This document shows, piece by piece, positions 1,974 to 45,458 of a stretch of 64,000 nt of DNA. Within the stretch, counting starts at the first letter, position 1. Each line of letters begins with the position of its first letter. A program made the position numbers and the translations under genes. The stretch lies in NCBI RefSeq assembly GCF_000024225.1, contig NC_013203.1, forward strand, positions 620,001-684,000, in the 5' to 3' direction. The notes below the pieces were generated by a model. It did no database searches, had not been told where the DNA came from, and was given only the letters and a program-made list of their open reading frames with translations. This stretch comes from Lancefieldella parvula DSM 20469 (lineage in GTDB: Bacteria; Actinomycetota; Coriobacteriia; Coriobacteriales; Atopobiaceae).

Positions 1974-1978
1974 GAGCG

Positions 1979-2824
1979 ATGGCCACTAAAAATCCTACAA
2001 AACTTATTAGACAAGAATCGCCCAACCTCATTCCTGAGCGAGACCTTGGCGCAATTCCAGTTCTTCAGGCTGAGCACTTAGGCATTGACTTTGGCGGCTT
2101 GACTGCTGTTAATGACTTCAATATTGCTCTTGGTCCTACTGAGATTTCTGGCATCATTGGTCCTAACGGTGCAGGTAAAACGACTGTCTTTAACTTGCTT
2201 ACGAGCGTCTACAAGCCAACGCGTGGTTCTGTCATGATTGATGGTTATGACCTTGCTGGTAAGAGTGTTGTTGAAACAAACCATATGGGTATTGCTCGAA
2301 CCTTCCAGAATATTCGTCTGTTCAATAACATGACTGTTATGGAGAACATCCAGGTTGGTCAGGGAAGTCACATGACATCTCACTTCTTCGAGGACGTTTT
2401 TCGTCTTCCAGCTCACTGGAAACAGGAGAAGGAGAGCGCTGATAACGCTTGTGAGTTACTACGTATTTTTGGCATGGAGAATCTTGCAAATACGCTTGCA
2501 GGCAACCTGCCATATGGCGCTCAGCGCAAGCTTGAGATTCTTCGTGCTCTGGCAACTCAGCCAAAGATTCTGCTTCTTGACGAGCCAGCTGCAGGTATGA
2601 ACCCAGCAGAGACTGATGAGCTTATGGAGAACGTCCTTAAGATTCGTGACGACTTCAAGATTGCCGTTCTTCTCATTGAGCATGACATGAAATTTGTTAT
2701 GGGTATCTGTGAGGGACTGGCTGTTCTGGACCACGGCAATATCATCGCAAAAGGTACCCCAGAAGAGGTTCAGAACAATCCTCGTGTTATTGAGGCCTAT
2801 CTTGGAAAGCAGGAGGTGCGTTAA
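1979..2824 (+). CDS. livG: Branched-chain amino acid ABC transporter ATPase LivG
   Basis: ATP-binding subunit of the Liv importer, on the cytoplasmic face of LivHM. The 281-residue protein has a Walker A GPNGAGKT near residue 61, the Q-loop FQNIRLF motif typical of LivG, a signature variant LPYGAQRKLEI, Walker B LLLDEPAAGMNP and a switch His (IEHDMKFVM). It has about 25 extra residues before the first beta strand. The stop codon overlaps the livF start by one base (TAATG), so the two ATPases are translationally coupled. Confidence 0.95.
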   Translation: MATKNPTKLIRQESPNLIPERDLGAIPVLQAEHLGIDFGGLTAVNDFNIALGPTEISGIIGPNGAGKTTVFNLLTSVYKPTRGSVMIDGYDLAGKSVVETNHMGIARTFQNIRLFNNMTVMENIQVGQGSHMTSHFFEDVFRLPAHWKQEKESADNACELLRIFGMENLANTLAGNLPYGAQRKLEILRALATQPKILLLDEPAAGMNPAETDELMENVLKIRDDFKIAVLLIEHDMKFVMGICEGLAVLDHGNIIAKGTPEEVQNNPRVIEAYLGKQEVR

Positions 2825-3573
2825 TGGCCACTGAAAATATAAATACTCAGGCAGCTGGTGTTGAAAAAGCTCTGCTGTCTGTTAAGGATCTTAATGTTTC
2901 TTATGGTGCCATTCACGCAGTTCAGGGTATCTCTTTTGATATCCACGAGGGTGAGATTGTCACCCTTATTGGTGCTAATGGTGCAGGAAAATCAACTACA
3001 CTGAATACCATTGCTGGCCTGGTAAAGCCTGATTCTGGCACCATTACTCTTGACGAGAAAAACCTTGTAGGTCAACGCGCCCACAAGATTGTTGAGGCTG
3101 GCCTGGCGCTGTGCCCTGAGGGTCGCCGTGTGTTTTCTCGCATGAGTGTTGCTGAAAATCTTGAGATGGGTGGCTATACACAGCCCGATTCCAAGAATGC
3201 CAAGACCGTCAAAATGGTTTACGAGCACTTTCCACGCCTTCGTGAGCGTAAGAATCAGCTGGCAGGAACGCTCTCTGGTGGCGAGCAACAGATGCTTGCT
3301 ATGGGTCGTGCTTTGATGAGCAGACCTAAGCTACTGATGCTCGACGAGCCTTCCATGGGCCTAGCGCCCATTCTGATTGAGGAGATCTTCCAGATCATTC
3401 GTCAGCTTGGTGATGCAGGGACCACTATTTTACTGGTCGAGCAGAACGCTAACATGGCACTTAAGGTTGCTGATCGTGCGTATGTTCTTGAGCTTGGTAA
3501 GGTAGCTAAGCATGGAACTGGCCAAGAGCTCCTGCATGACGATGACGTACGCAAGGCTTATCTCGGTGCGTAA
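2824..3573 (+). CDS. livF: Branched-chain amino acid ABC transporter ATPase LivF
   Basis: Second ATP-binding subunit of the Liv importer, pairing with LivG. The 249-residue product shows Walker A GANGAGKST, the LivF-typical CPEGRRVFSRMSVAENL segment, signature LSGGEQQMLAMGRALM, Walker B LLMLDEPSMGLAP and switch LVEQNANMAL. It is the last gene of the operon: a strong hairpin with a short T run follows at 3613-3650, and the next gene is on the other strand. Confidence 0.95.
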   Translation: MATENINTQAAGVEKALLSVKDLNVSYGAIHAVQGISFDIHEGEIVTLIGANGAGKSTTLNTIAGLVKPDSGTITLDEKNLVGQRAHKIVEAGLALCPEGRRVFSRMSVAENLEMGGYTQPDSKNAKTVKMVYEHFPRLRERKNQLAGTLSGGEQQMLAMGRALMSRPKLLMLDEPSMGLAPILIEEIFQIIRQLGDAGTTILLVEQNANMALKVADRAYVLELGKVAKHGTGQELLHDDDVRKAYLGA

Positions 3574-3612
3574 CGTTTTATTTCATAGCATATTAAACGT
3601 GTCTTAAATATC

Positions 3613-3650
3613 AGCCCCGGTTCCTATGCAACATAGAAGCCGGGGCTTTG
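3613..3650 (+). terminator. Rho-independent terminator after livF
   Basis: Perfect 8-bp stem AGCCCCGG / CCGGGGCT with a 19-base loop, followed by TTTG. It lies between the convergent livF and thrB genes and could serve as the end of both transcripts. Confidence 0.8.
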
Positions 3651-3684
3651 TCATATCTGAGTAAAGTGCCTAATAAAAGATATG

Positions 3685-4614
3685 TTAGATTTCGTCGAAA
3701 GTACTGTGGTGTTGTTGGCCGTCATCCAGAGTAAGGACGGTACCCAGAAGCGCCGGCTCAAGAATCTGAATCCAGAGATCGCCTCTGACTTGCTTGGCGT
3801 TTTCTGCAACAGCACGAGCGGTAACAGGGGAGTCGCAGATGGCAATCATGGTGGCACCCGATCCGGAAATGACAAATGCGCATGCTCTAGCAAGCTTAGA
3901 CACTTGTTTGAGTTCTTCGTAATCGGGAATGAGCTCTTTGCGATACGGCTCATGGAGCTTGTCATTACAAGCGGCCATTAAAAGACCACCGTTGCCTGTT
4001 TCAAGGGCATGAGTAACGGCAACGGTGCGTCCCATCTGATAAACAGCCGTTTCAAGAGAGACTTCTTGTGGAACTACTTTACGAGCGTCTTCGGTGTTGA
4101 CTGTATAAGGCGGTGCAATCGCGACAAAAGAAAGTCCACGCGCCACAAGTCTTCTGGTGCATACGGTATGACCGCCGTCAACAAATGACGAGGTCAAGCC
4201 ACCATAGATGGCAGGAGCAACATTATCGGGATGACCCTCAAAATTGCAGGCAAAATCAAGCGCACGTTCAGGATCCCAGCCGCCATGAGATTCAGTCATT
4301 GCAGCCGCAATACCCGCAACAACACAGGTTGAACTTGAGCCAAGTCCGCCAGAAAGCGGAATTGGCGAGTTGATGGTGATGTGCTTAGGTGTAGGTTCTT
4401 CACCCAGCTTTTCGCAGGCACGAACATATGACGTCCATACAAGGTTGTTTTCGTTTCTGAATTGCTCGGGACAGCCATCAATGATAAGCGCAGGAGATTC
4501 TCTAAACGCAATTTTTGCTCGCAGGTTAAATGCAAGACCTAGCGTATCGTAACCGACGCCGATATTTGCTGAGGTAGCAGGTACAGAAATGGTTAAGATG
4601 GTGTTGTCGAGCAT
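3685..4614 (-). CDS. thrB: Homoserine kinase
   Basis: GHMP-family kinase that phosphorylates L-homoserine to O-phosphohomoserine, the substrate of the threonine synthase encoded just upstream. The 309-residue product has the N-terminal VPATSANIGVGYDTLGLA motif, the ATP-binding SPIPLSGGLGSSS loop near residue 85-97 and the C-terminal SGSGATMIA motif. The start ATG at 4614 is preceded by a weak GCAGG site. It lies 22 bases downstream of thrC on the same strand, so thrC-thrB is one transcription unit. Confidence 0.95.
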   Translation of the reverse strand: MLDNTILTISVPATSANIGVGYDTLGLAFNLRAKIAFRESPALIIDGCPEQFRNENNLVWTSYVRACEKLGEEPTPKHITINSPIPLSGGLGSSSTCVVAGIAAAMTESHGGWDPERALDFACNFEGHPDNVAPAIYGGLTSSFVDGGHTVCTRRLVARGLSFVAIAPPYTVNTEDARKVVPQEVSLETAVYQMGRTVAVTHALETGNGGLLMAACNDKLHEPYRKELIPDYEELKQVSKLARACAFVISGSGATMIAICDSPVTARAVAENAKQVRGDLWIQILEPALLGTVLTLDDGQQHHSTFDEI

Positions 4615-4636
4615 GTAGAACCTGCTTTCTCAGAGT

Positions 4637-6145
4637 CTAACAAGCAAAAATACGTTCGCATGCCTCAAAAACGTACGAAGCAAGTTCTTCCTTCTCGCGA
4701 ACGTCAGTATGAATGATAACGTTATCATTCAGCGATGAAAGCTGGATTGGCGGATTAGTGCCTGTGATTTCGGCGAGCGTATGCATGCACGCAAAGTCAT
4801 TCAGGTCAGCGGTCGAGTGACCCAGCGCGGCAAGCACGTCGGACGAAAACTTGTATGGACTTGCAGTGGACAGACATATGCGCACGTCGTTTGTTTGGCG
4901 AGAAACCCTGTCAAGTACGTGTTTTGCAACAGCTGTGTGAGGATCAATCAGCATACGACAATTCTCCCAGGTAGAACGAATGGTTTCTCGCGTCTGGTCG
5001 TCGGTGGCAAAGCCAGCGTCAAAGGTTTCACGGATGGTGTCCATCACCTGAGCAGGCACTGTGTAGATACCCTTAGTTACCAGCTGGTTCATCAGATAGC
5101 TGACAAGCTCGGTGTCTTTGCCGGATGCAAGATAGAGAAGTCGTTCAAGATTTGATGAAACTAGAATATCCATTGATGGAGAGATGGTTTTTTCAAATGC
5201 ACGTCTACGGTCATAGGTGCCTGTTGTTAAGAAATCAGTTAGCACTTTATTGCTGTTAGAAGCCACGATAAGGCGATCAACAGGTAATCCCATCTCTTTT
5301 GCAAAGTATCCAGCAAGGACATCGCCAAAGTTGCCAGTTGGAACGCAGAAGGTAATCTTTTGACCCAGCGTAATAGTGCCCTTGGCAACTAGTTGAGCAT
5401 ATGCGTCAAAGTAGTAGGTTACCTGTGGAGCTAAACGACCAATATTAATTGAGTTTGCGCTGGAAAGTACAGTATTTTTGCCGGCTAATTCCTGAGCTAA
5501 TTTTTTGTTAGCAAAGATTGCTTTAGCGGCATTTTGTGCATCATCAAAGTTGCCATTAACAGCACAAACAGCAATGTTTGAGCCTTTTTGGGTCACCATC
5601 TGTAGGCGTTGAATATCCGAGACTTTACCCTCTGGATAAAAAACGGTAATACCCATACCTGGTACATCTTTGAAGCCTTCAAGTGCAGCTTTACCAGTGT
5701 CTCCAGAAGTAGCGGTGACAATCATAATATTCTGACCGCTAGTACTAGCTGCATTTGTGTCTTCGCGAGCAACGCTCATCAAGCGAGGGAGCATCTGAAG
5801 TGCAACGTCTTTGAAGGCAGATGTCGGACCATGGAAGAGCTCAAGCAGCCAATCATCTCCGATAGCAGAAACAGGAGTAATGGTCTTGGTGTCCCACTGA
5901 GTGCCATATGCACCTTCAATACAGCGATTCAACTCCTCAGGCAAGTAGTCATCAAGCAGAGTAGAAAGTACGTCATAAGCTGTAGACTTAAAGTCCTGGG
6001 AGCAAACCTTTACAAGATCAAGGGGTTTCTCGCCAATAGAATCTTGGATGTAGAGGCCGCTATCGGGAGCAATTCCCTGCAAAATGGCCTGTTTAGCCGA
6101 GACGGTATGATCAAAGCTTCTTGTGCTGTGATATGCGACGGCCAT
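4637..6145 (-). CDS. thrC: Threonine synthase
   Basis: PLP enzyme converting O-phosphohomoserine to threonine and phosphate. The product (502 residues from the chosen start) has the N-terminal STRSFDHTVSAKQAILQG and the PLP lysine in the FHGPTSAFKDVALQ motif near residue 103, plus the SGDTGKAALEGF phosphate-binding loop, typical of the long bacterial/yeast-type ThrC. The start at 6145 (MAVAYHSTR) has a GGTGG site four to five bases upstream and fits the family N-terminus; an in-frame ATG at 6175 would add ten residues. It is divergent from hom. Confidence 0.95.
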   Translation of the reverse strand: MAVAYHSTRSFDHTVSAKQAILQGIAPDSGLYIQDSIGEKPLDLVKVCSQDFKSTAYDVLSTLLDDYLPEELNRCIEGAYGTQWDTKTITPVSAIGDDWLLELFHGPTSAFKDVALQMLPRLMSVAREDTNAASTSGQNIMIVTATSGDTGKAALEGFKDVPGMGITVFYPEGKVSDIQRLQMVTQKGSNIAVCAVNGNFDDAQNAAKAIFANKKLAQELAGKNTVLSSANSINIGRLAPQVTYYFDAYAQLVAKGTITLGQKITFCVPTGNFGDVLAGYFAKEMGLPVDRLIVASNSNKVLTDFLTTGTYDRRRAFEKTISPSMDILVSSNLERLLYLASGKDTELVSYLMNQLVTKGIYTVPAQVMDTIRETFDAGFATDDQTRETIRSTWENCRMLIDPHTAVAKHVLDRVSRQTNDVRICLSTASPYKFSSDVLAALGHSTADLNDFACMHTLAEITGTNPPIQLSSLNDNVIIHTDVREKEELASYVFEACERIFAC

Positions 6146-6309
6146 GAAACCACCAATCTTTAGAATGTGCGGCATGTTGCGTTTCTATTATTTTAACAGT
6201 GAGAAGTAAATGTCGCTTGTAGCATAGAATTGTTCATAGCATTATGAAGACGAGAAAAACTGTCAATAAGATCTTGCCATGTTTTTGGTAGTTTTTGTCT
6301 ATGAGATTG

Positions 6310-6361
6310 TGACCAGTGTGGTCATCTTTGCGAGCAATCGACCTTGTTGCACAAAGATGAC
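6310..6361 (+). promoter_or_regulatory. Overlapping inverted repeats in the hom leader
   Basis: Two dyads share bases: TGACC-N5-GGTCA at 6310-6324, and a perfect 10-bp repeat GTCATCTTTG / CAAAGATGAC at 6321-6330 and 6352-6361. Because the GTCA half is common to both, the two hairpins cannot form together in RNA. They end 18 bases before the hom start. Either an operator for a dimeric regulator or an attenuator-like switch would fit; no T-box or riboswitch signature is seen. Confidence 0.45.
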
Positions 6362-6379
6362 TGCTAGATTTGGAGCTAT

Positions 6380-7519
6380 ATGCAAAACGTTGCCCTACTT
6401 GGATTTGGAACGGTTGGTGCTTCAGTCGCGCGCATTCTTGATGAGCGTATTTCTGACGTTAACCTGACCTCCATCTTAGTTAGAGCTGGTAAAGAGCACG
6501 TTGACCCTCGTGCAACGTCTAATTTTGATGCGATATTGTCTGATTCTGCACTCGATACTGTTGTTGAGTGTATGGGTGGTCTCTCGCCAGCTTATGAGTA
6601 CATTAAGGCAGCACTGATTGCTAAGAAAAATGTAGTCACTTCAAATAAAGCTGTGGTATCAGCTCATTTTGAGGAATTCATGACCCTTGCTGCTGAAGCA
6701 GGCGTCAACTTAAAGATTGAAGCATGCGTGTGTGGCGGTATTCCTTGGATTGCAGGAATTCAAAAAGTACGTCGTATTGATGAGATTTCTGCGTTCTGGG
6801 GAATCATGAATGGAACCACCAACTACATTGTTTATTCTATGCTCAAAGACGGAACGGATTTTGCCGAGGTTTTGAGCAAGGCTCAGGAGTTGGGTTATGC
6901 CGAGCGAGACCCGTCAAGTGATATCGACGGTATTGACGTTCGTTCCAAAACTATGATTTCTGCATCTATTGCTTTTGATGTGATTTGCACTAATCAGATC
7001 CCTATGTCCGGTATCAGAAACTTAACTAAGCGTGATCTTGCCATGTTTGGTAGCCACGATATGACTATCAAGCTTTTTGGACGAGGTGTTTCCAACGGCT
7101 CATCCTACGCTGTTGTTGTTGAGCCGGTTGCTGTTCCACTTTCAGCTATTGAGGCTCACGTTCCTACCAACTTTAATGTTGCTACTGTGGTAGGAGATAC
7201 CATTGGGGAGCTAAAGTTCTATGGTCAAGGTGCCGGTGGTAATCCAACGGCAAACGCTGTTGTACAAGATATTATTGACTGTGCAGATGCTCCTATTGAG
7301 GGCCAGCAGAACTTCTCGGCAAATCTTTTATATAATCCTGAGCTGTTTGTTTCCGATTATGTGTTTAGGACGCAAGCTGATATTCCGGGCGGCTCGTTCT
7401 GGGAGCCAGGCGCTCAATTGGTCAAGAATTTGAGTGCCGAGAAGGCCCGTGAGCTTCTTACTAGCGCGCTTACGCAAGACCCTACAACCTTTATGGCTGC
7501 ACTTGAAAAGAGGAATTAG
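6380..7519 (+). CDS. hom: Homoserine dehydrogenase
   Basis: NAD(P)H-dependent reduction of aspartate semialdehyde to homoserine. The 379-residue product starts with the Rossmann motif LGFGTVGASVARIL, has the NKAVVSAHF segment, the catalytic-domain motif GIMNGTTNYI near residue 140 and AERDPSSDIDGIDVRSK. It is shorter than the roughly 430-residue enzymes with a C-terminal ACT domain, and no ACT-like region is apparent, so threonine feedback on this enzyme is uncertain. The start at 6380 follows a GGAG site at 6-7 bases. Two bases separate it from lysC. Confidence 0.95.
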   Translation: MQNVALLGFGTVGASVARILDERISDVNLTSILVRAGKEHVDPRATSNFDAILSDSALDTVVECMGGLSPAYEYIKAALIAKKNVVTSNKAVVSAHFEEFMTLAAEAGVNLKIEACVCGGIPWIAGIQKVRRIDEISAFWGIMNGTTNYIVYSMLKDGTDFAEVLSKAQELGYAERDPSSDIDGIDVRSKTMISASIAFDVICTNQIPMSGIRNLTKRDLAMFGSHDMTIKLFGRGVSNGSSYAVVVEPVAVPLSAIEAHVPTNFNVATVVGDTIGELKFYGQGAGGNPTANAVVQDIIDCADAPIEGQQNFSANLLYNPELFVSDYVFRTQADIPGGSFWEPGAQLVKNLSAEKARELLTSALTQDPTTFMAALEKRN

Positions 7520-7521
7520 AA

Positions 7522-8850
7522 ATGATTAAAATTGCAAAATTTGGTGGCTCAAGTGTTGCCTCCGCAGAGCAGTTTAAAAAAGTTAAGGCTATTGTTGAGG
7601 CTGACCCTGATAGATGCTTTATTGTTTCGTCTGCAGCAGGAAAGCGTCATTCAACTGATAATAAGATTACTGACCTTTTATTGCTGGTAAATGCTCATAT
7701 TGAGTATCACGTTGACTGCACTTCTTTGCTTGCAGATATTGAGGCTCGCTTTGTAGAGATTGCTGACGAATTGGGAGTTACATGGCCTGTTGCTAAGGAA
7801 TTTAAGAAGTTTGCTACAAACATCAAGTCCTTCTCGCCAGAGTATGTAGTGAGTAGGGGTGAGTGGTTTACCTGCCAGATTCTTGCTGAGTATCTGGGAT
7901 TGCCATTTGTTGATGCTGCCGACGTCATGCTGTTTCATCATGATGGCACCATCGATATGGAGCGCACTGCTTCTAGAATTAAAGGAGTAGTTGCTCGTAG
8001 TGGTTCTTTTGTACTGCCTGGTTTCTACGGCGCTACAGTTGACGGTGCAATTAAGCTGTTCCAGCGCGGTGGCGGCGATATTACCGGTGCCATTGTGGCT
8101 CGCTGCTTAGACGCGGACTTGTACGAGAACTGGACTGACGTGTCCGGCTTCCTTTCTGCTGATCCTCGCATTGTGCAGAATCCGCGTGCCATCGGCCGTA
8201 TTACCTTTGACGAGATGCGCGAGCTTTCTTACATGGGTGCTTCCGTTCTTCAGGAGGAGGCAATTTTCCCTGTTCGAGAGGCAAACATTCCAATCCAGAT
8301 TAAGAATACGAACCGTCCAGAAGATACAGGTACTGTGATTCGTGAAACCGCTGATGGTGATGTGAGCGAGCATCTTATTACCGGCATTGCAGGTAAAAAA
8401 GACTTTTTAGCAATTCATGTTAAAAAAGCACACATGTCCAACGAGGTTGGCGTAATTAGTCGTGCACTCAATATTGTTGAACGCTATGGTGTTTCTGTTG
8501 AGCATATTCCAACAGGCGTTGATTCATTTGGTATTGTGGTCAATGCTTCTGACGTAAAAGATACGGTTTATTCCATCATCAGCGATATTCGTCGCGAGAT
8601 TGAACCTGATGATATTACGATGGTAGACCGTCTAGCTCTCGTCTCTGTTGTTGGCCGTAATATGTCTAGGCGCTCCGGTACCTCTGGCAAGATTTTTGGT
8701 GCGCTGGGTAATGCGGGCGTCAACATTCGTATGATTACGCAGAGTTCTGAAGAGATTAGCATTATCGTGGGAGTCGATAATACCGACTTTGATCGCACAA
8801 TTGGCGTCATTTACAACGGATTTGTTCGTGACGAAATGGTTTCGAGGTAA
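7522..8850 (+). CDS. lysC: Aspartate kinase
   Basis: Phosphorylates aspartate in the first step of the aspartate family pathway. The 442-residue product has the N-terminal KFGGSSVA motif at residue 5, the substrate-binding VSRGEWFT segment near residue 114, RGGGDITGA and a C-terminal pair of ACT-like regulatory repeats (about residues 290-440, with VGRNMSRRSGTSGKIF and NIRMITQSSEE). Length and motifs fit the single-chain class rather than the alpha/beta type with an internal start. It sits between hom and asd with two-base gaps on both sides. Confidence 0.93.
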   Translation: MIKIAKFGGSSVASAEQFKKVKAIVEADPDRCFIVSSAAGKRHSTDNKITDLLLLVNAHIEYHVDCTSLLADIEARFVEIADELGVTWPVAKEFKKFATNIKSFSPEYVVSRGEWFTCQILAEYLGLPFVDAADVMLFHHDGTIDMERTASRIKGVVARSGSFVLPGFYGATVDGAIKLFQRGGGDITGAIVARCLDADLYENWTDVSGFLSADPRIVQNPRAIGRITFDEMRELSYMGASVLQEEAIFPVREANIPIQIKNTNRPEDTGTVIRETADGDVSEHLITGIAGKKDFLAIHVKKAHMSNEVGVISRALNIVERYGVSVEHIPTGVDSFGIVVNASDVKDTVYSIISDIRREIEPDDITMVDRLALVSVVGRNMSRRSGTSGKIFGALGNAGVNIRMITQSSEEISIIVGVDNTDFDRTIGVIYNGFVRDEMVSR

Positions 8851-11751: not shown

Positions 11752-11810
11752 TACTTTTACAGTAGCCATACAGTTTGGAGGCAAAATGGAGGCAGAAAAT
11801 AAAAAATTTA

Positions 11811-11840
11811 ACAAAAAAGGTAGACGGCAAGCCGCCTACC
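11811..11840 (-). terminator. Terminator of the truncated tRNA-Arg copy
   Basis: On the minus strand a GGTAGGCGGC / GCCGTCTACC stem with a two-base loop is followed by six T residues. It would terminate a tRNA-Arg transcript reading leftwards. A diverged copy exists downstream of the intact tRNA at 45343-45373. Confidence 0.65.
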
Positions 11841-11844
11841 TGGT

Positions 11845-11895
11845 GTTTTTGGTGCCTCCTGCGCGATTCGAACGCGCGACCTGCGGTTTAGAAGA
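11845..11895 (-). pseudogene. attL: 3' half of tRNA-Arg (truncated tRNA)
   Basis: Fifty-one bases are identical to 45377-45427. They comprise the anticodon-loop-to-CCA half of tRNA-Arg on the minus strand (tRNA part 11850-11895) plus five downstream bases. To the right the sequence becomes phage DNA, so the 5' half of the tRNA is missing and this copy is not functional. This defines the left attachment site; crossover lies within this block. Confidence 0.9.
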
Positions 11896-12002
11896 TATAT
11901 CATCAACCGCTCATTAAATTCCGTTACGCTCAATAAATGCCGTTACGACCTGCTAAAACGAGTTTTTGTCCGGTGTGTATAGTAAAACTGTCCATACAGT
12001 TT

Positions 12003-12020
12003 GGGTGCAAAAAGGGTGCA
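12003..12020 (+). repeat. Candidate integrase arm-type site, left
   Basis: The 18-mer GGGTGCAAAAAGGGTGCA, itself a tandem GGGTGCA pair, occurs here 108 bases inside attL and again at 45309-45326, 51 bases inside attR, in the same orientation. A diverged GGAGGCAAAATGGAGGCA form lies outside attL near 11777. Placement on both arms of the reconstructed attP suits an integrase or excisionase binding site. Confidence 0.5.
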
Positions 12021-12059
12021 CTGCACCCCTTTAAGCGTTTGCACGTTAAGGAGAACGGC

Positions 12060-13271
12060 ATGAATATTGCAGTCAAAAGACATGGAACTTTCTGGCAAGC
12101 TCGTGTACGTTTTCGTGGAGCTGATGGAACCATCCAAGAAAAAAGTAAATCTCTCGGAATTCCCTGTGCGGCTGGAAGGGGCAAAAAAGTTGCTCGAGCA
12201 GCTGCTGAGAAATGGGTTCAAGATGCAGGGTTTGTTGAGGTTGTCGAACAGAATCAAGCAACAAGGCTTGATTGTTCGGCATATACGTATTGTCTTAATT
12301 ACTTTAAGAGCCTTGTTGCCACACAACAAATTGAACGTCGTACTTATACGTCTTATAAGAATAACGTCCGATATATTGATTTGTTCTTTGGAGAAAAGCG
12401 ACTACAAGAGATTACTGTCACGGATGTCGAGTTATATGTGTCTTGGCTTTATGATTCTGGCTATGCAGCTAATACGGTTAAGAAAGCATTTAACTCCTTC
12501 CGTGCTTGTACGCGCCATGCTGTAGCAATTAGAGATCTGCAATACGATCCATGTGCGGCAATTAAAGCGCCAAAAGGTTATCTTGCACCGCCAAATCCGC
12601 TAAACGAACCTTCACGCAAGAAGCTTCAAGTCATGCTTTCTGCTCTTGAGCTTTCTCCGATGGTACTTGCGACATACCTGGCATATTACACAGGTATGAG
12701 ACGTGAGGAGTGTTGTGGACTTCAATGGAAGGACGTGAAGTTTAAAGCTGAAGATGTCACAGCACATCTCTGTCGAGCCATCTCATACGATGGCGGCAAA
12801 ACCTACATTAAGGGTTTAAAAAATGGTAAAGATAGAACGGTACCTATTCCAGCTCCGCTTGTAGACATTCTTAAGCAGTGGCGTTCTAAATACATTGAAG
12901 ATTGTATGTTGATGGGAATTGCGTTTAGTGAAGAGATGTACGTTCTAGGTGACTTCTCTGGCGAATATCTTAGACCAGAGCGAGCGACTGCATGGTGGAA
13001 GAGTCACTCTGAGGAGTGGGGTCTTCTTGGAACGCAGGGGAGAAGACCAGTCTTTCATGATCTGCGACACACATATGCAACGATTGCAGTTAGAACTATG
13101 GACATTAAGAGCGCACAAGACATTCTTGGACACAGCGATATTAATATGACAATGCGTTATGCAGATACAGACTTGGAGCAAATTCAAAAGGCAGGGAAAA
13201 TTATTGGAGAGGCTCTTAACGATGCTCACAAAGACGGTGCAGAAGTACTACAACTTAGGCGAGCGATATAA
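12060..13271 (+). CDS. int: Phage tyrosine integrase
   Basis: Site-specific recombinase expected to integrate the phage into tRNA-Arg. The 403-residue product has a short N-terminal arm-binding region (VKRHGTFWQARVRF), a SAM-like core-binding domain around residues 75-165, and the catalytic domain with Arg (TGMRREE, about 214), H-L-R (FHDLRHTY, about 333-336), His (LGHSDI, about 358) and the nucleophile Tyr (MRYADTD, about 367). The start at 12060 is supported by AAGGAG six bases upstream; an in-frame start at 11937 would extend into the attachment region without a binding site. It reads away from attL and ends at a bidirectional terminator. Confidence 0.95.
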   Translation: MNIAVKRHGTFWQARVRFRGADGTIQEKSKSLGIPCAAGRGKKVARAAAEKWVQDAGFVEVVEQNQATRLDCSAYTYCLNYFKSLVATQQIERRTYTSYKNNVRYIDLFFGEKRLQEITVTDVELYVSWLYDSGYAANTVKKAFNSFRACTRHAVAIRDLQYDPCAAIKAPKGYLAPPNPLNEPSRKKLQVMLSALELSPMVLATYLAYYTGMRREECCGLQWKDVKFKAEDVTAHLCRAISYDGGKTYIKGLKNGKDRTVPIPAPLVDILKQWRSKYIEDCMLMGIAFSEEMYVLGDFSGEYLRPERATAWWKSHSEEWGLLGTQGRRPVFHDLRHTYATIAVRTMDIKSAQDILGHSDINMTMRYADTDLEQIQKAGKIIGEALNDAHKDGAEVLQLRRAI

Positions 13272-13299
13272 AAAGAGGAGCTTATTGCTCCTCTTTTTT
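13271..13299. terminator. Bidirectional terminator between int and the lysogeny operon
   Basis: AAAGAGGAGC / GCTCCTCTTT stem with a five-base loop, flanked by an A run on the left and a T run on the right, so it works for both the integrase and the convergent leftward genes. Confidence 0.85.
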
Positions 13300-13824
13300 A
13301 CTCCAACGTTTTGAAATTACCTCGTAGGTTATTCCAATTCGTTTTATTGTCATACAAGTTACAAGAACAAGATTTAATGAAAAGGCAATTGCTAAACCTG
13401 CAAATAGATTTCCTATCAATGTGCTGTATGTTGCTACAAGTGGTTTTACAACTATAAATGCCGCTGAAGTAAAACCTGCGACGACAGCCCAAAGAGTACA
13501 ATAAAAAATCTCATCGATTACTCTTAGTTCATTTCCTTCATGCTTAATGTCTTTCTGAGAGATTAGTTGCATCCTAAGCTGGTAAATCATAACAACAACG
13601 GCAAAAATTAACGAAGAGGTAATTGCTACCCATGTTAGGAGTCCCTGAAGAGCTTCATCGAGAGAGTCATGGAATTTATCTGCGTTGATGATAATTACAA
13701 CAGCAATGATAAGCGGTGTAATAATCTGACAAAAAACGTCAAATTTAGATATCTTCTTTTCGTAACCTTGGTGGAGTGATGCAATATAGTTTTTGACCAC
13801 ATAACATAAACTAATTTTGCTCAT
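13282..13824 (-). CDS. Four-helix membrane protein, RexB-like candidate
   Basis: A 180-residue protein with four predicted membrane segments at about residues 30-48, 60-81, 106-131 and 136-160, and charged cytoplasmic ends (KRWSKKEEQ at the C-terminus). No sequence family is recognised. It is the last gene of the leftward lysogeny operon, directly after a soluble 305-residue protein. In phage lambda the order repressor, RexA (soluble, 279 aa), RexB (four-helix channel, 144 aa) is the same. The RexB assignment rests on position, size and topology, not on residue identity. The start ATG is preceded by AAGGAGGAG. Confidence 0.45.
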   Translation of the reverse strand: MSKISLCYVVKNYIASLHQGYEKKISKFDVFCQIITPLIIAVVIIINADKFHDSLDEALQGLLTWVAITSSLIFAVVVMIYQLRMQLISQKDIKHEGNELRVIDEIFYCTLWAVVAGFTSAAFIVVKPLVATYSTLIGNLFAGLAIAFSLNLVLVTCMTIKRIGITYEVISKRWSKKEEQ

Positions 13825-13867
13825 TTCTCCTCCTTATGTCGAACATTCGTTCTTTGTTGTTATTATT

Positions 13868-14785
13868 CTACAATATTGAGCGTCCTAATCTGTTTGAAAT
13901 GTCTTCTACCTTTTCTGCACATCTTTTAACAAACTCATTATCGCTTAAAGGTTTGTCTCCATTACAGTTTAATAACTCTACAATTCTCATATCAAAATCA
14001 TCATTCAGTTTGAACTTCTTTGTTCGTCCAACGTTATTTTTCATTTGAACTTCGACAACAGCGTCATCGCCGTCAAAAATACTCTTTTCATATCCGACTA
14101 AGGTTTTTCTTCTCGCGTCTTTAGATCTAATTGCATCGAGTATCTTCGTTGGAAATGGTCTGTTCTTTTTATGCCCATACGTCAACATGACATAGTCGCT
14201 TTCTTTAATTAGGCTTTCAGATATGTCATTTTGTTTGATGTAGTGTTTGATAGAAATTTGCTCGACAGATTTAAATGTGTCTTCTGCTTCTTTTTCTGTA
14301 ACTGCTTCATATTTCATAGTTACGTGTGGAGCGGCTTGTCTCAGGTAGTTTGCAAATTCTTTTGGAACAATAGTATCTCCAGCAAATGATAAAGCATGCT
14401 CAACGCAAAGGATTGCATATGTATCGCCTGTGTTTTCAACAGATAAATAAACGCGTGTTCCAACTAATGCAGCTTGTTCTGCATTAATATTTCCTACATT
14501 TTTATTAGTAGATGGCTCATAGATAACACGGTCTTCACCGGCTAGACCAGATTCAATTGATGCGAGAATACTTTTTTCTGAGATGGTATCAATCTTGTGA
14601 AATCTTAGAATTTTGACGTTTTCATTTTCTAATTTTGGGATGACCCTAGAATTGAGAAATTTCGAGAAGTGTGTAAGTATGCTTTCTCCATCTAAATCAT
14701 ATATGCTACACACTTCATCAGGGTGTCTTCTTTTGTTGAACATGAATTTGTAAACAACAAGAGTTCTTTCAGCATAAACAACCAT
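13868..14785 (-). CDS. Soluble lysogeny-operon protein, RexA-like candidate
   Basis: A 305-residue soluble protein with no recognised catalytic motif. The layout recalls lambda RexA: an early ILRFHKID strand (RexA has YLYIHKID), a central strand pair reading VYLSVENTGDTYAILCVEH, and a C-terminal half with strands and a final helix ending in a Cys-containing amphipathic segment. In lambda, RexA senses an invading phage and gates RexB. The start at 14785 has AAAGGG eight bases upstream, and that site is part of an 87-base repeat shared with the 16181 gene. Alternatives are an unrelated abortive-infection protein or a nucleoid-associated protein. Confidence in expression is high, in function modest. 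Confidence 0.45.
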   Translation of the reverse strand: MVVYAERTLVVYKFMFNKRRHPDEVCSIYDLDGESILTHFSKFLNSRVIPKLENENVKILRFHKIDTISEKSILASIESGLAGEDRVIYEPSTNKNVGNINAEQAALVGTRVYLSVENTGDTYAILCVEHALSFAGDTIVPKEFANYLRQAAPHVTMKYEAVTEKEAEDTFKSVEQISIKHYIKQNDISESLIKESDYVMLTYGHKKNRPFPTKILDAIRSKDARRKTLVGYEKSIFDGDDAVVEVQMKNNVGRTKKFKLNDDFDMRIVELLNCNGDKPLSDNEFVKRCAEKVEDISNRLGRSIL

Positions 14786-14793
14786 CTCTCAAA

Positions 14794-14880
14794 CCCTTTC
14801 ACAATTCTTTCAAGCTTTTATAAATCGGATTTACTTTTTATTCATTGCTACCACTAAGAGGAAACGTACGCTTTAAGAAA
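14794..14880 (-). repeat. Duplicated promoter/leader segment, copy 1
   Basis: About 87 bases that match 16189-16275 closely: the 37-base part next to the start codons differs at only one position, and the ACCACTA block is also shared. Both copies end with the AAAGGG ribosome binding site of the gene they precede. On the minus strand both contain TCCGATTTATAAAAGC, with TATAAA a possible -10. The 14786-14906 gap holds nothing else. Confidence 0.75.
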
Positions 14881-14906
14881 CAAATAATTAGCAATAAAGC
14901 GACATC

Positions 14907-15935
14907 TTAGCTTTGTTTTAACATTTCGAGCATTTGTTGCTCACTTATAATTTTGATGCCAGTTCGGTCGGCATACTTCCTAGCTGTTTTAATTTTTGTG
15001 GTTTCGTCTCCAGAGCAATCAATCAAATAATTAGTTTTGAGAGTTACTCTTTCGCTCAAGGTTGCCCCATTTGTAATTAGCATTTTTAGAAAATCGCTTT
15101 TAGGCATACAGCACGGAACACCTGTCAAGCAAAAGACGGTTCCAGAAAGCTTTGTGCTTTCAGTGTTTTTATCGGTGTATTTCTCAATACATTTTACGTT
15201 TTCCGTTGTTGCTATAGAAATTTCTCTCATCTTTTCGTAGATGCCATAAGTCATATAACAGTCCGCGAGAGCCCTGTGAGCTTTGCCATGTTGTTTAACG
15301 TTAAGTCTTTTGGCAATATTTATCAGTTTGTATGGTGGCTCTAAGATTTGTCTAGCCAATTTGTATGTGTCATACCAAACATAATCGCATAAAAAGTCGC
15401 GTCTAAAGAAATTCTCCTCGAGAACAATCGCGTCATATCTAAGAGAGTTATGACCGATTAGAGGAAATCCTTTAACGAACGTATCAAATTGCGGGATAAC
15501 TTTATCGAGCGTTGGCGCATTCTTTACCATGTGATTAGTTATATGGTTGATTGCAGTTGCGCCAGATGGTATCTCTCTTGGAGGATGAATGAGCGAACTA
15601 AATTCTTCTGTAATTTTTCCGTCTACTACTTTAAGAGCGGCAATTTCAATGATTTCGCAGTAATGGACGTCTAGCCCTGTTGTTTCAAGATCTACTACTA
15701 CATATGATTCAGGATATTTTGAGACATCAAAATCTGCCCAGCGCGTTCTTTTTAAAGGAACATTACTTGGTTTAGTTTTAACTTTTGGTGCTTGAGGGGA
15801 TACAGGCAATGGGATATTTTGTGCACCAGCAGGAGGTGTTGGGTAAAAACCATTTGTCGAATTTTGTTTTTTATTGCGCCGCTTTTTGAAAAGTAGGAAC
15901 ACAACTACGAGAAACACTAGATACCAGAAAGCCAT
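14907..15935 (-). CDS. Membrane-anchored DEDDh exonuclease with C-terminal BRCT domain
   Basis: A 342-residue protein. Residues 2-16 form a membrane anchor followed by a Lys/Arg stop-transfer (KKRRNKK) and a Pro-rich linker to about 62. Residues about 78-235 form a DNA polymerase III epsilon-like exonuclease with all motifs: DLETTG at 82-87, HNSLRYD with Asp168, and HRALADC with His220 and Asp225. Residues about 262-341 form a BRCT domain (LSGTVFCLTGVP, TNYLIDC). The nuclease and BRCT should lie in the cytoplasm at the membrane. Soluble epsilon-BRCT proteins are common; the membrane anchor plus location in a lysogeny operon is unusual and suggests action on incoming DNA. Alternatively a repair nuclease. 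Confidence 0.85.
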   Translation of the reverse strand: MAFWYLVFLVVVFLLFKKRRNKKQNSTNGFYPTPPAGAQNIPLPVSPQAPKVKTKPSNVPLKRTRWADFDVSKYPESYVVVDLETTGLDVHYCEIIEIAALKVVDGKITEEFSSLIHPPREIPSGATAINHITNHMVKNAPTLDKVIPQFDTFVKGFPLIGHNSLRYDAIVLEENFFRRDFLCDYVWYDTYKLARQILEPPYKLINIAKRLNVKQHGKAHRALADCYMTYGIYEKMREISIATTENVKCIEKYTDKNTESTKLSGTVFCLTGVPCCMPKSDFLKMLITNGATLSERVTLKTNYLIDCSGDETTKIKTARKYADRTGIKIISEQQMLEMLKQS

Positions 15936-15980
15936 ACATTCTCCTAAATGGTTTACCGCTAACTCTCGTAATGACTAGTT

Positions 15981-16181
15981 TTACTTGAATAAATCGAAGA
16001 TACTAAATGTAAGTTTGTTATAAGCCTTGTTGTAGAGAGCTTTTTTAGGGTCTTTGAAAATACCTGTACCTTTCTTCTCATATCCAGGAATAATGGCTTT
16101 TTTGATACTTCGTTTTAGCTTTCCTGTTGTACGAGCTGATATAGAGCGCTTAAGACTTGGCTTTCGCATTCCGAACTTCAT
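15981..16181 (-). CDS. Small basic phage protein (66 aa)
   Basis: A 66-residue, strongly basic protein (RKPSLKRSISARTTGKLKR, GYEKKGTGIFKDPKKA). Similar short basic proteins are recalled beside CI-type repressors in phages of Firmicutes; their function is unknown. The ATG at 16181 lies a few bases after the AAAGGG site at the end of duplicated leader copy 2. The 45-base gap to the exonuclease gene has no terminator, so co-transcription leftwards is likely. Confidence 0.65.
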   Translation of the reverse strand: MKFGMRKPSLKRSISARTTGKLKRSIKKAIIPGYEKKGTGIFKDPKKALYNKAYNKLTFSIFDLFK

Positions 16182-16188
16182 GTTCTTT

Positions 16189-16275
16189 ACCCTTTCACAA
16201 TTCCTTCAAGCTTTTATAAATCGGACTCAATTTTTGTCCGGTGTTACCACTAGAGTAGAACGCATGTTCTTTGAG
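16189..16275 (-). repeat. Duplicated promoter/leader segment, copy 2
   Basis: Partner of 14794-14880. This copy additionally holds a CGGAC-N9-GTCCG dyad just upstream of the shared TATAAA box, which is absent from copy 1. It would provide a repressor-independent or separately controlled start for the genes downstream of the repressor. Confidence 0.7.
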
Positions 16276-16289
16276 AATTAAACATTTCT

Positions 16290-16922
16290 TTAGATTTCAA
16301 ATCCGAATGGAACTAAATACCAAATAACTTCACCAATAATCGAAATTGGCTGCGTGTCAATCTCATTAAAGTCAAATATTTGTGGTCTAAATGTAGGATC
16401 TATGCTGTCTGGGATTAGCTCATAGCCATTCGATAGAGGCTTTACTCGTTTAATAGTTGCATCAAAGCCATTCACACACACTGCATATGCCTTCATAGGC
16501 TTAATTTCTTCTTTACATGGGTTAATAAGTGCATAACAACCATTAGGAAGAACACGGTTCATGGACTCACCGACAACTTTTAAAAGAAAAGCTTGCGGAT
16601 ATCTCTCATGAATGTCTGCTGGGATGTCATAAGTCTCATCAACGCTAATCATTTCAATAGGGGTGCCCGCAGCTATTGAGCCTAAGAGTGGAACAGGTGC
16701 CATATCAGAAACTTCTGATATCTCTGGACTACTAGACATTCCAAGAAGGTATGCCAGGCTCACATTCAAGATTTCGGACATTTCAATCATCTTATCCATG
16801 CGGATGTTAACTTGGTTAGTCTCATATCTTTGAACTGTCTGCTGAGTGGTTCCCATTTTCTCAGCTAATTCAGCTTGCGTAATATTTCTAAGCTTACGTG
16901 CTTCAGCAATTTGGTATTTCAT
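16290..16922 (-). CDS. CI/LexA-type prophage repressor (HTH + S24 peptidase)
   Basis: Maintains lysogeny by binding the operators at 16972-17040. The 210-residue product has an XRE helix-turn-helix at about 14-35 (TQAELAEKMGTTQQTVQRYE) and a C-terminal S24 self-cleavage domain: cleavage site Ala85-Gly86 in LLGSIAAGTP, nucleophile Ser120 in VVGESM, general base Lys158 in DATIKRV. All residues for RecA-stimulated self-cleavage are present, so SOS induction is expected. The start at 16922 has GAAGGTGAG upstream. It is divergent from the Cro-like gene. Confidence 0.95.
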   Translation of the reverse strand: MKYQIAEARKLRNITQAELAEKMGTTQQTVQRYETNQVNIRMDKMIEMSEILNVSLAYLLGMSSSPEISEVSDMAPVPLLGSIAAGTPIEMISVDETYDIPADIHERYPQAFLLKVVGESMNRVLPNGCYALINPCKEEIKPMKAYAVCVNGFDATIKRVKPLSNGYELIPDSIDPTFRPQIFDFNEIDTQPISIIGEVIWYLVPFGFEI

Positions 16923-16952: not shown

Positions 16953-16971
16953 TTGTCTTCATAATAATTAC

Positions 16972-17040
16972 ACACTTTTTGTGTTGTATCAAACACATTT
17001 TGTGTGTATTATCAACATCGTTAACACACAGAATATGTGT
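16972..17040. promoter_or_regulatory. Operator region with three ACAC/GTGT dyads
   Basis: Three palindromic sites in the repressor-Cro intergenic region: ACACTTTTTGTGT at 16972-16984, ACACATTTTGTGT at 16993-17005 and ACACAGAATATGTGT at 17026-17040. Sites 1 and 2 are 21 bases apart centre to centre, sites 2 and 3 are 34 apart. The half-site ACAC(A) is constant. This is the classic three-operator layout of a temperate switch. Confidence 0.8.
16984..17012 (+). promoter_or_regulatory. Rightward early promoter (PR)
   Basis: TTGTAT at 16984-16989, a 17-base spacer and TATTAT at 17007-17012. The middle operator lies entirely within the spacer, so repressor binding would block it. It drives the Cro-like gene and the early operon. 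Confidence 0.75.
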
Positions 17041-17061
17041 ATTTGAAAGGAGGTGCTTACT

Positions 17062-17277
17062 ATGAGAATGAACATGAAAGCTGAAAGAGCAAGGTGTGGA
17101 CTGTCTGCAAGTGAAGCTGCTAAAAGAATTGGCGTTTCAACGAACACACTTTTACGCTGGGAGTCTGGCAAGAATACCCCTCTTTCAGAAAATCTTATGA
17201 AGCTGGCAAGGCTTTATAACTGCACTCCTGATTACTTACTTGGCATAGGTAATTACCGTACACGAATCACATGTTAA
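17062..17277 (+). CDS. Cro-like HTH regulator
   Basis: A 71-residue single-domain XRE protein with helix-turn-helix at about residues 14-40 (LSASEAAKRIGVSTNTLLRWE) and the LYNCTPDYLLG ending common to phage Cro/CI-family proteins. ATG at 17062 has GGAGG eight bases upstream; a GTG at 17053 is in frame but less likely. As first gene of the rightward operon under PR it should be the lytic-side competitor of the repressor. Confidence 0.85.
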   Translation: MRMNMKAERARCGLSASEAAKRIGVSTNTLLRWESGKNTPLSENLMKLARLYNCTPDYLLGIGNYRTRITC

Positions 17278-22675: not shown

Positions 22676-22902
22676 TGAAAAATCGACTACGTATTGCAGA
22701 CATAAAATTTATTCGTGGCCTGGTTTGTGAGGTATGGCACAGTCAGAGCGATATGCAGCGAGCTCTCATGAACAACGATTTAGCTGCCGTTCTAAAAGAA
22801 ATTAGCTTTTCAGATAAGCAATTAATAACATTGGTATGCACTCTTAACAAGCTAGTCGAAGACTTCAAAAATGACGAAGAACTGCAAGGCGGTAAACAAT
22901 GA
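22675..22902 (+). CDS. Small phage protein, unknown (75 aa)
   Basis: Seventy-five residues, helical, starting MKNRLRIADIKFIRGLVCEVW. No motif recognised. ATG overlaps the upstream stop by one base, and its stop overlaps the second recombinase by four bases (ATGA), so these small genes and the recombinase form one translational block. Confidence 0.55.
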   Translation: MKNRLRIADIKFIRGLVCEVWHSQSDMQRALMNNDLAAVLKEISFSDKQLITLVCTLNKLVEDFKNDEELQGGKQ

Positions 22903-24074
22903 ACCGCTCAATAAAAGTTCGATTGAATTCGAACGGCATTTGGTGCTGTAGGCTTTACTTAGGAAGAAATCTTAACGGCAAAATCATTCAGCCTTATGCA
23001 AGCTTTCCTACGGCAAAGACGCAGAAAGAAGCTGAAGAATTAGCCACTATGTGGGCGTCTCATATTACGTCTGACGGCAAAGTTAAAAGCACACAGCTTA
23101 CCGATTTACTTCTCGAGTATGTTTCTATTAAACGCAGGAATGGCGCGAGCCCTAACACTACAAGGCAGCATGAAGGCTTCATTAGAAACCATATCAATGG
23201 AAGGCTTGGTAAAGAGGATGTAAGAAGTATTACATCCTCTTTATTCACTTCATTTGAGCAGGATTTATTGAAGAAGGGTTTGTCTCGAAACAGTGTAATT
23301 AACCTGCATCAATTCTTGAGAGGTGCATACAATTACTTTGTTTCAGCTGGCATATGCGACTATAACCCGCTTATTAACGTGGCTAAGCCGTCCAGGGAAG
23401 TCCATGAAGCTGTATCCATTGAAGAATGGGGTTTTGCTGGGATAAGTACCCTTATTAATTCCAGGATTACTACAGCCATTCAAGAGGATGAGTTTAATTC
23501 CCGTGTTGTTTGTGCCTTTGCTGCTTGGCTGTCTTTAGTAACTGGTATGCGCTGCGGTGAAGTTTGTGCTATTAGATACAGTGATGTAAACATGCTATAT
23601 AAGCATATCCACGTATCTGGTACCGTCATTGAAGAGTCTTACAGAAAGCCTTATAGACGAGAATCAACCAAGGGTAAGAGATCTAGAAACATAGCCATTA
23701 CAGACTCGGACATCAGTTTTATTAGTGACTACATGAAGCTTCAGCAAGCTCATATTGCCTTTGTGGAGTCTTCTACACCGTTAATTAGCCTTGATGGCTC
23801 TTACATGCGTCCAACGAGCGTTTCGAGGTCATTTACACGCATGAGACGCACTCTCCAGCTACCTCAAGGCATTACCTTCCACTCACTCAGACATACTCAC
23901 GCGTCTTGGTGTTTGGCAAGTGGCGTTGACTTAAAGACTCTTTCAGAGCGTCTTGGCCACGCAGACCCAGCAACAACTTTGAGGATTTATTCTCATTTGC
24001 TGCCTGGACGTGACCGGGGAGCGGCAGAAGCGTTTGGAGACGCGCTTAGGACCATTGAACAAGGAGCGTTCTAA
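22899..24074 (+). CDS. Second tyrosine recombinase
   Basis: A 391-residue integrase-family protein with all catalytic residues: Arg218 (TGMRCGE), His328-Arg331 (FHSLRHTH), His354 (LGHADP) and Tyr364 (LRIYSH), an N-terminal arm domain and a SAM-like core-binding domain at about residues 65-165. It is only distantly like the attL integrase. It is embedded in the early operon and coupled by ATGA overlap to the preceding gene, so it is phage-controlled rather than a nested element. Possible roles are dimer resolution, an alternative attachment site or a DNA switch; the inverted repeat at 24129-24164 is a candidate site. Confidence 0.92.
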   Translation: MNRSIKVRLNSNGIWCCRLYLGRNLNGKIIQPYASFPTAKTQKEAEELATMWASHITSDGKVKSTQLTDLLLEYVSIKRRNGASPNTTRQHEGFIRNHINGRLGKEDVRSITSSLFTSFEQDLLKKGLSRNSVINLHQFLRGAYNYFVSAGICDYNPLINVAKPSREVHEAVSIEEWGFAGISTLINSRITTAIQEDEFNSRVVCAFAAWLSLVTGMRCGEVCAIRYSDVNMLYKHIHVSGTVIEESYRKPYRRESTKGKRSRNIAITDSDISFISDYMKLQQAHIAFVESSTPLISLDGSYMRPTSVSRSFTRMRRTLQLPQGITFHSLRHTHASWCLASGVDLKTLSERLGHADPATTLRIYSHLLPGRDRGAAEAFGDALRTIEQGAF

Positions 24075-45326: not shown

Positions 45327-45342
45327 CTTGTAAAAAAATTTA

Positions 45343-45373
45343 ACAAAAAAGGTAGACGGCAAGCCATCTACCT
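45343..45373 (-). terminator. Terminator of the intact tRNA-Arg
   Basis: On the minus strand GGTAGATGGC / GCCGTCTACC (one G.U pair) followed by six T residues, just after the tRNA 3' end. Phage-borne counterpart of 11811-11840, so integration replaces tRNA 3' half and terminator together. Confidence 0.65.
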
Positions 45374-45376
45374 TGG

Positions 45377-45427
45377 GTTTTTGGTGCCTCCTGCGCGATT
45401 CGAACGCGCGACCTGCGGTTTAGAAGA
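45377..45427. repeat. attR core repeat
   Basis: Exact 51-bp copy of 11845-11895, reaching from just outside the tRNA 3' CCA to the anticodon loop. The identity stops at ...TTTAGAAGA, where the host 5' half of the tRNA begins. Confidence 0.93.
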
Positions 45428-45458
45428 CCGACGCTCTATCCAGCTGAGCTAAGGAGAC
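45382..45458 (-). tRNA. tRNA-Arg (anticodon TCT)
   Basis: A 77-nt cloverleaf on the minus strand: acceptor GTCTCCT / AGGAGGC, D-arm GCTC..GAGC, anticodon loop CTTCTAA (TCT), T-arm GCGCG-TTCGAAT-CGCGC, encoded CCA. The 27-43 base pair (T with C) does not form, while the other four anticodon-stem pairs do. Reconstituted by phage integration. Confidence 0.95.

What the first reader, a model, noticed from the sequence alone, without database searches (positions are those of the whole stretch)
13282..16181. RexAB-like two-gene pair in the lysogeny operon together with a membrane nuclease
Seen: repressor, small basic protein, membrane exonuclease-BRCT, a soluble 305-aa protein and a 180-aa protein with four membrane segments lie in this order on one strand, as lambda cI-rexA-rexB do. 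Known: RexA (279 aa, soluble) activates RexB (144 aa, four-helix channel) in abortive infection; distantly related Rex-like pairs occur in actinobacteriophages. Inferred: this is a prophage defence module, possibly two-tiered (membrane nuclease against entering DNA, RexAB-like depolarisation later). The residue-level match to RexA is limited to a few segments, so homology is uncertain.
Basis: partly seen in the sequence, partly recalled or inferred. Interest (0 to 1): 0.8.

Follow-up and report, generated by a model that had tools for sequence, protein, structure and literature searches.

The report
RexAB-like defence pair in a prophage
A dormant virus in an oral bacterium carries, next to its own 'stay dormant' switch, a two-gene pair that is a distant but real relative of proven 'shut the cell down when another virus invades' systems, and relatives of the pair also sit beside ordinary bacterial virus-defence genes where current search models do not see them.

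Summary
The prophage is bounded by att repeats (11801-11895/45333-45427).

Single-sequence searches find nothing, but a chain of relatives gives 13 loci (Coriobacteriia, Micrococcales, one phage). In all 13, A is followed directly by B on the same strand. The 13-row A profile matches the experimentally proven RexA-like proteins CarolAnn gp44/Sbash gp30 (plus Sejanus gp46) over full length: hhalign score 89.7, best of 200 shuffled controls 37.6. B matches CarolAnn gp43/Sbash gp31 (38.5 versus 24.7), and the B model's top viral structure hit is Sbash gp31. Similarity to lambda RexA is structural only (Z 7.2, weak); lambda RexA/RexB sequence models do not match.

Verdict: a new RexAB-like abortive-infection pair of the CarolAnn/Sbash branch. 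Five relatives neighbour restriction-modification genes outside recognised prophages, which supports defence. The 'two-tiered' idea with the nuclease is weak: 11 of 13 pairs have no such nuclease directly upstream, and a related prophage carries an Abi_2 gene in that slot instead. No function was tested.

The parts
13282..13824 (-). B: RexB-like four-helix membrane protein (180 aa), predicted N-in/C-in, conserved central cytoplasmic loop (FQxR ... DE)
   Evidence: in 13/13 homologous loci directly after A; profile match to CarolAnn gp43/Sbash gp31 and Butters gp31; top BFVD hit Sbash gp31
13868..14785 (-). A: RexA-like soluble protein (305 aa), predicted sensor/activator
   Evidence: full-length profile match to CarolAnn gp44/Sbash gp30/Sejanus gp46 (score 89.7, controls at most 37.6)
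14793..14856 (.). 64-bp direct repeat, copy 1, just upstream of A
   Evidence: 86% identical to 16189-16252; core motif found only twice in this genome and in none of 139 other family genomes
14907..15935 (-). DEDDh exonuclease-BRCT protein (342 aa) with N-terminal hydrophobic anchor; neighbouring cargo, not shown to belong to the pair
   Evidence: protein of the same domain make-up after the repressor in G671 and G027
15981..16181 (-). 66-aa basic phage protein (pI 10.7) of unknown function
   Evidence: phrog_10934/3374/29766/4721
16189..16252 (.). 64-bp direct repeat, copy 2, upstream of the 66-aa gene
16290..16922 (-). CI-type repressor (HTH + S24 peptidase), first gene of the operon
17053..17277 (+). 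divergent Cro-like HTH gene (assignment by sequence reading and position)
   Evidence: (translation)
11937..13271 (+). att-proximal tyrosine integrase, converging with B
11801..11895 (.). left att repeat
45333..45427 (.). right att repeat, overlapping tRNA-Arg 45382-45458

Best explanation
The 305-aa (A) and 180-aa (B) genes are a RexAB-like abortive-infection pair of the branch known from actinophages CarolAnn and Sbash. Shown here by computation: homology of both proteins to those pairs, strict pairing, position in the repressor operon of a prophage, B as a four-helix membrane bundle, and restriction-modification or other defence neighbours for relatives outside recognised prophages. Inferred: both genes are expressed in the lysogen with the repressor. 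A dimer of A, probably DNA-binding like lambda RexA and Sbash gp30, recognises a product or nucleoprotein structure made by an invading phage. A then acts on B through B's conserved central cytoplasmic loop, and oligomeric B makes the membrane leak, so the cell stops growing and the infection fails.
For: Pairing on the same strand, at most 43 nt apart or overlapping, in 13/13 loci. A profile versus CarolAnn gp44/Sbash gp30/Sejanus gp46: probability 97.6, score 89.7, 299 columns collinear; 100 column shuffles reach at most 26.0, 100 block shuffles 37.6, reversed 13.6; without the window sequence still 86.8. B profile versus CarolAnn gp43/Sbash gp31/Sejanus gp45: 38.5 versus control maximum 24.7; versus Butters gp31 34.5 versus 26.1. 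B model top BFVD hit is Sbash gp31, TM 0.71/0.76, rmsd 3.4. A model: lambda RexA 8twq Z 7.2, RdgC 6.9, Iml3 7.2, CENP-N 7.2; PMC11077077 reports RdgC, IML3 and CHL4 as RexA relatives (CENP-N as the human counterpart of Chl4 is from memory). B topology (charged N-terminus, C-terminus and loop 2-3; conserved R84, D104, E105) fits Sbash gp31, whose inactivating substitutions lie in that loop (PMC6426596). Restriction-modification neighbours in 5/13 loci and an AbiLi-like gene near a sixth. Function of the homologues: PMC6426596, PMC6426606, PMC12894663.
Against: No experiment on this locus. No sequence match to lambda RexA/RexB (PF15969, PF15968, PDLC02339). The window A protein alone does not match the actinophage profile (score 19.3); the link runs through the family. 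The A model is mediocre (pLDDT 65, pTM 0.69) and its RexA match is within the range of chance folds (Z below 8, no significant Foldseek hit in the PDB). Sbash gp31 was one of six rows in the alignment used to model B, and the B match is the weaker of the two sequence links.
Confidence: 0.77

Rival explanations
1. Reversed roles as in mycobacteriophage Butters: the soluble protein is the toxic or antiviral effector and the four-helix protein holds it at the membrane in check.
For: B also matches Butters gp31 (score 34.5 against control maximum 26.1). PMC7542560 shows that arrangement is possible with the same gene layout.
Against: A matches CarolAnn/Sbash, not Butters gp30, and in those two systems B is the proposed membrane effector (PMC6426596, PMC6426606).
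Confidence: 0.1
2. The pair mainly tunes the lysogeny switch (as lambda RexA biases CI-Cro) and any exclusion is a by-product.
For: It lies in the repressor operon; lambda RexA has such an activity (PMC11077077).
Against: Most relatives lie outside any repressor operon seen here, including plasmid and restriction-linked copies, where there is no switch to tune.
Confidence: 0.08
3. One reading: the anchored DEDDh-BRCT nuclease attacks entering phage DNA first, the Rex pair acts if that fails.
For: Repressor / DEDDh-BRCT / A / B / integrase order is also found in the G671 prophage, in another family.
Against: 11 of 13 pairs have no such nuclease directly upstream. In G027 the repressor and nuclease come with Abi_2 instead. 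The two prophage nucleases share little sequence (25% over 48 residues). A 64-bp repeat brackets the 66-aa + nuclease genes, as if they were separate cargo. The G671 nuclease has no evident anchor.
Confidence: 0.06
4. A Kiwa-type system (KwaA four-helix membrane protein + KwaB DNA-binding protein).
For: Same size classes: a four-helix membrane protein with a soluble protein of about 300 aa.
Against: No KwaB (PF16162) or PADLOC Kwa match. hhalign of the A family against a Coriobacteriia KwaB gives nothing (score 13.8). Gene order is reversed (that KwaB follows its 4-TM partner).
Confidence: 0.02

Closest known systems
CarolAnn gp44/gp43 (Gordonia phage) and Sbash gp30/gp31 (Mycobacterium phage)
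   Same: Soluble A then four-helix B, overlapping or adjacent; full-length profile homology of A, weaker of B; CarolAnn's pair is co-expressed with the repressor, as the position here suggests.
   Different: Very divergent (15-20% identity to the window proteins); host Coriobacteriia; two genes between repressor and pair; relatives in restriction-linked islands and plasmids.
Lambda RexA/RexB
   Same: cI-rexA-rexB order in the lysogeny operon; soluble + four-helix membrane protein; the A model resembles 8TWQ (Z 7.2, rmsd 4.2 over 139 residues).
   Different: No sequence match to PF15969/PF15968 or to lambda RexA/RexB themselves; extra genes between repressor and pair; RexB is 144 aa.
RexABpp of Pseudomonas putida prophage P1 (PMC12894663)
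   Same: Distant RexA-fold protein + four-helix protein, two genes downstream of a CI-like repressor; BLAST alone did not find RexA.
   Different: Proteobacterial; not compared by sequence here.
Butters gp30/gp31
   Same: B shows weak profile similarity to gp31.
   Different: A shows no match to gp30; reported roles are reversed.

Membership tests
RexAB-like pairs, CarolAnn/Sbash branch | Soluble partner homologous to CarolAnn gp44/Sbash gp30 | tested here: met
   hhalign score 89.7, probability 97.6, 299 columns; controls at most 37.6
RexAB-like pairs, CarolAnn/Sbash branch | Four-helix membrane partner homologous to gp43/gp31 | tested here: met
   score 38.5 versus control maximum 24.7; top BFVD hit Sbash gp31; weaker than for A
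RexAB-like pairs, CarolAnn/Sbash branch | Two genes adjacent on one strand, soluble first | tested here: met
   13/13 loci
RexAB-like pairs, CarolAnn/Sbash branch | Expressed in the lysogen | not testable with these tools
   same strand as and downstream of the repressor; no RNA data
RexAB-like pairs, CarolAnn/Sbash branch | Both genes needed to exclude heterologous phages | not testable with these tools
   needs plaque assays
RexAB-like pairs, CarolAnn/Sbash branch | Soluble partner dimerises and binds DNA non-specifically | not testable with these tools
Lambda RexA (PF15969) / RexB (PF15968) sequence families | Match to the family models or to lambda RexA/RexB | tested here: not met
   the same Pfam models also miss CarolAnn, Sbash and Butters
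RexA/RdgC fold | Split globular domain + dimerisation domain with RexA topology | tested here: inconclusive
   model with seven N-terminal strands, a second alpha/beta part and a C-terminal helix; 8twq Z 7.2, RdgC 2owl Z 6.9, Iml3 7.2; below the safe threshold
Kiwa (KwaA/KwaB) | KwaB domain PF16162 in the soluble partner | tested here: not met

The most novel reading that the evidence does not exclude
RexAB-like pairs are not a phage peculiarity: an unrecognised, highly diverged branch is carried on bacterial chromosomes and plasmids as a standing defence next to restriction-modification systems, and prophages use the same cassette in a cargo slot of the repressor operon that in other prophages holds other abortive-infection genes (Abi_2).
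Probability: 0.5. Interest if true: 0.65.

Novelty: new member of a known kind. Interest (0 to 1): 0.52.

Why it matters
What triggers RexAB is a roughly 70-year-old question, and only five RexAB-like systems are described (PMC12894663). DefenseFinder's RexAB models report it only in Proteobacteria and mostly in prophages (PMC9090908). Here a diverged branch appears in about 3% of sampled Coriobacteriia genomes and in some Micrococcales, strictly paired, and partly beside restriction-modification systems. That gives many new pairs for tracing the sensor-channel interface, and a profile that would find them. If the restriction link is functional, DNA cut by restriction could be a natural trigger for a DNA-binding RexA-like sensor, which is testable.

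Tried and rejected
Single-sequence searches with A or B against Pfam, PHROGs, PADLOC, NCBIfam, phages, viral contigs, GTDB contigs and 139 other family genomes gave no informative match; the one weak plasmid hit opened the family. Weak hits such as ChpXY, PelG and histone H2B were rejected as chance. Direct comparison with lambda RexA/RexB by sequence: nothing. The first alignments that mixed lambda and Butters into the actinophage set were replaced by cleaner ones. Kiwa tested and rejected. Structure comparison of B with the PDB gives only generic helical bundles. Foldseek of A against the PDB had no significant hit and 8twq was not among the 50 rows shown; KwaB was not listed for A, which proves nothing. 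No RexA-like solved structure by profile. Promoter/terminator scans found no more than shuffles. The phylum-wide search with the 13-row profile found no further genome among 395. The restriction-modification adjacency probability uses an assumed background of 2-5% and is only indicative.

Full report
Setting. The window is bases 620001-684000 of a 1,543,805-bp single-contig genome. A 95-bp repeat (95.8% identical) at 11801-11895 and 45333-45427, the right copy inside tRNA-Arg, bounds a prophage of about 33.5 kb. By sequence reading of its translated genes it has head, tail and lysis regions. The operon studied runs on the minus strand away from a divergent Cro-like gene towards the att-proximal integrase.

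Observation. The five genes exist as described. The repressor has HTH and S24 peptidase domains. The 342-aa protein has RNase_T and BRCT domains and an N-terminal hydrophobic segment. The 180-aa protein has four hydrophobic segments.

Finding the family. Alone, A and B are orphans: no Pfam, PHROG, PADLOC or NCBIfam match worth the name, and no tblastn match in 50,697 phages. A weak plasmid match (24.6% over 97%, E 4e-8) in Microbacterium proved real because the next gene there is homologous to B (26%, pairwise E 1e-15). From it came a Glutamicibacter plasmid and Dulem virus 32, then an Arthrobacter contig, then, with a four-row profile, eight further Coriobacteriia genomes of 297 others sampled. 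In all 13 loci A is followed by a small, mostly four-segment membrane protein on the same strand, overlapping or at most 43 nt away. Conserved positions: in A, G83, R111, E129 and C289 (13/13); in B, P37, R84, G117 and R162 (13/13) and D104/E105 (12/13).

Link to proven defence pairs. The 13-row A profile against CarolAnn gp44 + Sbash gp30 + Sejanus gp46 (the last annotated 'RexA family abortive infection protein') gave probability 97.6 and score 89.7 over 299 collinear columns. One hundred column-shuffled profiles reached at most 26.0, one hundred block-shuffled 37.6, the reversed profile 13.6. Leaving the window sequence out gives 86.8; the subset nearest the window gives 46.5; the window alone is too weak (19.3). 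B against CarolAnn gp43/Sbash gp31/Sejanus gp45 gave 38.5 versus a control maximum of 24.7, and against Butters gp31 34.5 versus 26.1. Neither reaches lambda RexA or RexB by sequence. This is no argument against membership in the actinophage branch, since the Pfam RexA/RexB models and the PADLOC RexA model recognise lambda while Pfam misses CarolAnn, Sbash and Butters and PADLOC misses CarolAnn.

Structure. The A model (six-row alignment, pLDDT 65, pTM 0.69) has seven N-terminal strands with helices, a second alpha/beta part and a C-terminal helix, the order described for lambda RexA in PMC11077077. Among A's best solved-structure matches are lambda RexA 8twq (Z 7.2, rmsd 4.2, 139 residues spread over nearly the whole length of both), RdgC (Z 6.9, 193 residues), Iml3 (Z 7.2) and CENP-N (Z 7.2). 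PMC11077077 names RdgC, IML3 and CHL4 as RexA's structural relatives. Z below 8 is within the range of unrelated folds, unrelated proteins score as high, and Foldseek found nothing significant in the PDB, so this is supporting only. The B model (pLDDT 82) is four long helices. Its first viral-library match is Sbash gp31 (TM 0.71/0.76, rmsd 3.4), far ahead of the second; Sbash gp31 was one row of its alignment. Charge distribution predicts both termini and the loop between helices 2 and 3 inside, as proposed for Sbash gp31, where inactivating substitutions fall in that loop (PMC6426596).

Neighbourhoods. Three loci are phage lysogeny regions: the window, the G671 prophage (repressor, 218-aa protein, DEDDh-BRCT, A, B, integrase) and Dulem virus 32 (HTH protein, A, B, then genes up to the integrase). 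Five others have restriction-modification genes close by: Microbacterium (annotated type I system, with a TIR protein further on), G688 (HsdR by PADLOC, HsdM and HsdS by reading, directly upstream on the same strand), Arthrobacter (HsdR-like, by reading), G715 (MT-A70 methylase and BglII-like endonuclease) and G585 (N6_Mtase with HSDR_N). G581 has an AbiLi-like ATPase nearby. This defence-island pattern is the best evidence of role that is independent of homology.

The nuclease. DEDDh-BRCT proteins follow the repressor in the window, G671 and G027 prophages, but in G027 the recognisable cargo before the integrase is Abi_2, not the pair, and 11 of 13 pairs have no such nuclease directly upstream. 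The 64-bp repeat that brackets the 66-aa + nuclease genes suggests exchangeable cassettes. So the slot between repressor and integrase looks like a cargo site for anti-phage genes; a joint nuclease-Rex mechanism is not supported.

Mechanism. Shown by computation: homology, pairing, place, membrane topology. From the literature on homologues: in CarolAnn and Sbash both genes are needed, B is the proposed membrane effector and specific products of the attacking phage trigger the system (PMC6426606, PMC6426596); in RexABpp, overexpressed RexA activates RexB and damages membranes (PMC12894663). Inferred: the same here. The trigger is unknown. The roles could be reversed as in Butters (PMC7542560), though A resembles CarolAnn/Sbash and not Butters.

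Novelty. The window pair is a new member of a known kind. What is new around it is the breadth: a branch not detected by the Pfam and PADLOC RexA models, in Coriobacteriia and Micrococcales, partly outside recognised prophages and beside restriction systems. The DefenseFinder survey reported RexAB only in Proteobacteria and mostly in prophages (PMC9090908).

Noticed in passing
window 14793-14856 and 16189-16252: 64-bp direct repeat (86%) in front of both the 66-aa gene and A, bracketing the 66-aa + nuclease genes; its core occurs only twice in this genome and in none of 139 other family genomes. Possible cassette boundary or shared leader.
   Followed up: partly
window 22899-24074; L043 607-1761: A second tyrosine recombinase near an SSB gene inside the prophage, besides the att-proximal integrase; the G671 prophage (L043) has the same two-recombinase arrangement.
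   Followed up: partly
L069 (G027 prophage) 1830-8316: Repressor operon with DEDDh-BRCT and an Abi_2 gene in the place where the window has the RexAB-like pair: the slot before the integrase seems to hold abortive-infection cargo.
   Followed up: partly
window 16970-17041: Three ACACA...TGTGT inverted sites between the repressor and the Cro-like gene, likely operators (read from the sequence, not tested).
   Followed up: no
window 15981-16181: 66-aa basic protein matches the N-terminal 66 positions of several longer PHROG families of unknown function (phrog_10934, 3374, 29766, 4721), as if it were a detached shared N-terminal domain.
   Followed up: no
L016 18026-34009: In the Microbacterium plasmid the pair, a type I restriction system and a TIR-domain gene lie between two pieces annotated as ComEC/Rec2 and DUF4131, as if an island had split comEC.
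   Followed up: no
L037 8435-8902 and L039 4205-4672: Two pair-bearing Coriobacteriia genomes (G639, G638) share a similar 155-aa gene upstream of the pair (transglutaminase-like in G639); link unknown.
   Followed up: no
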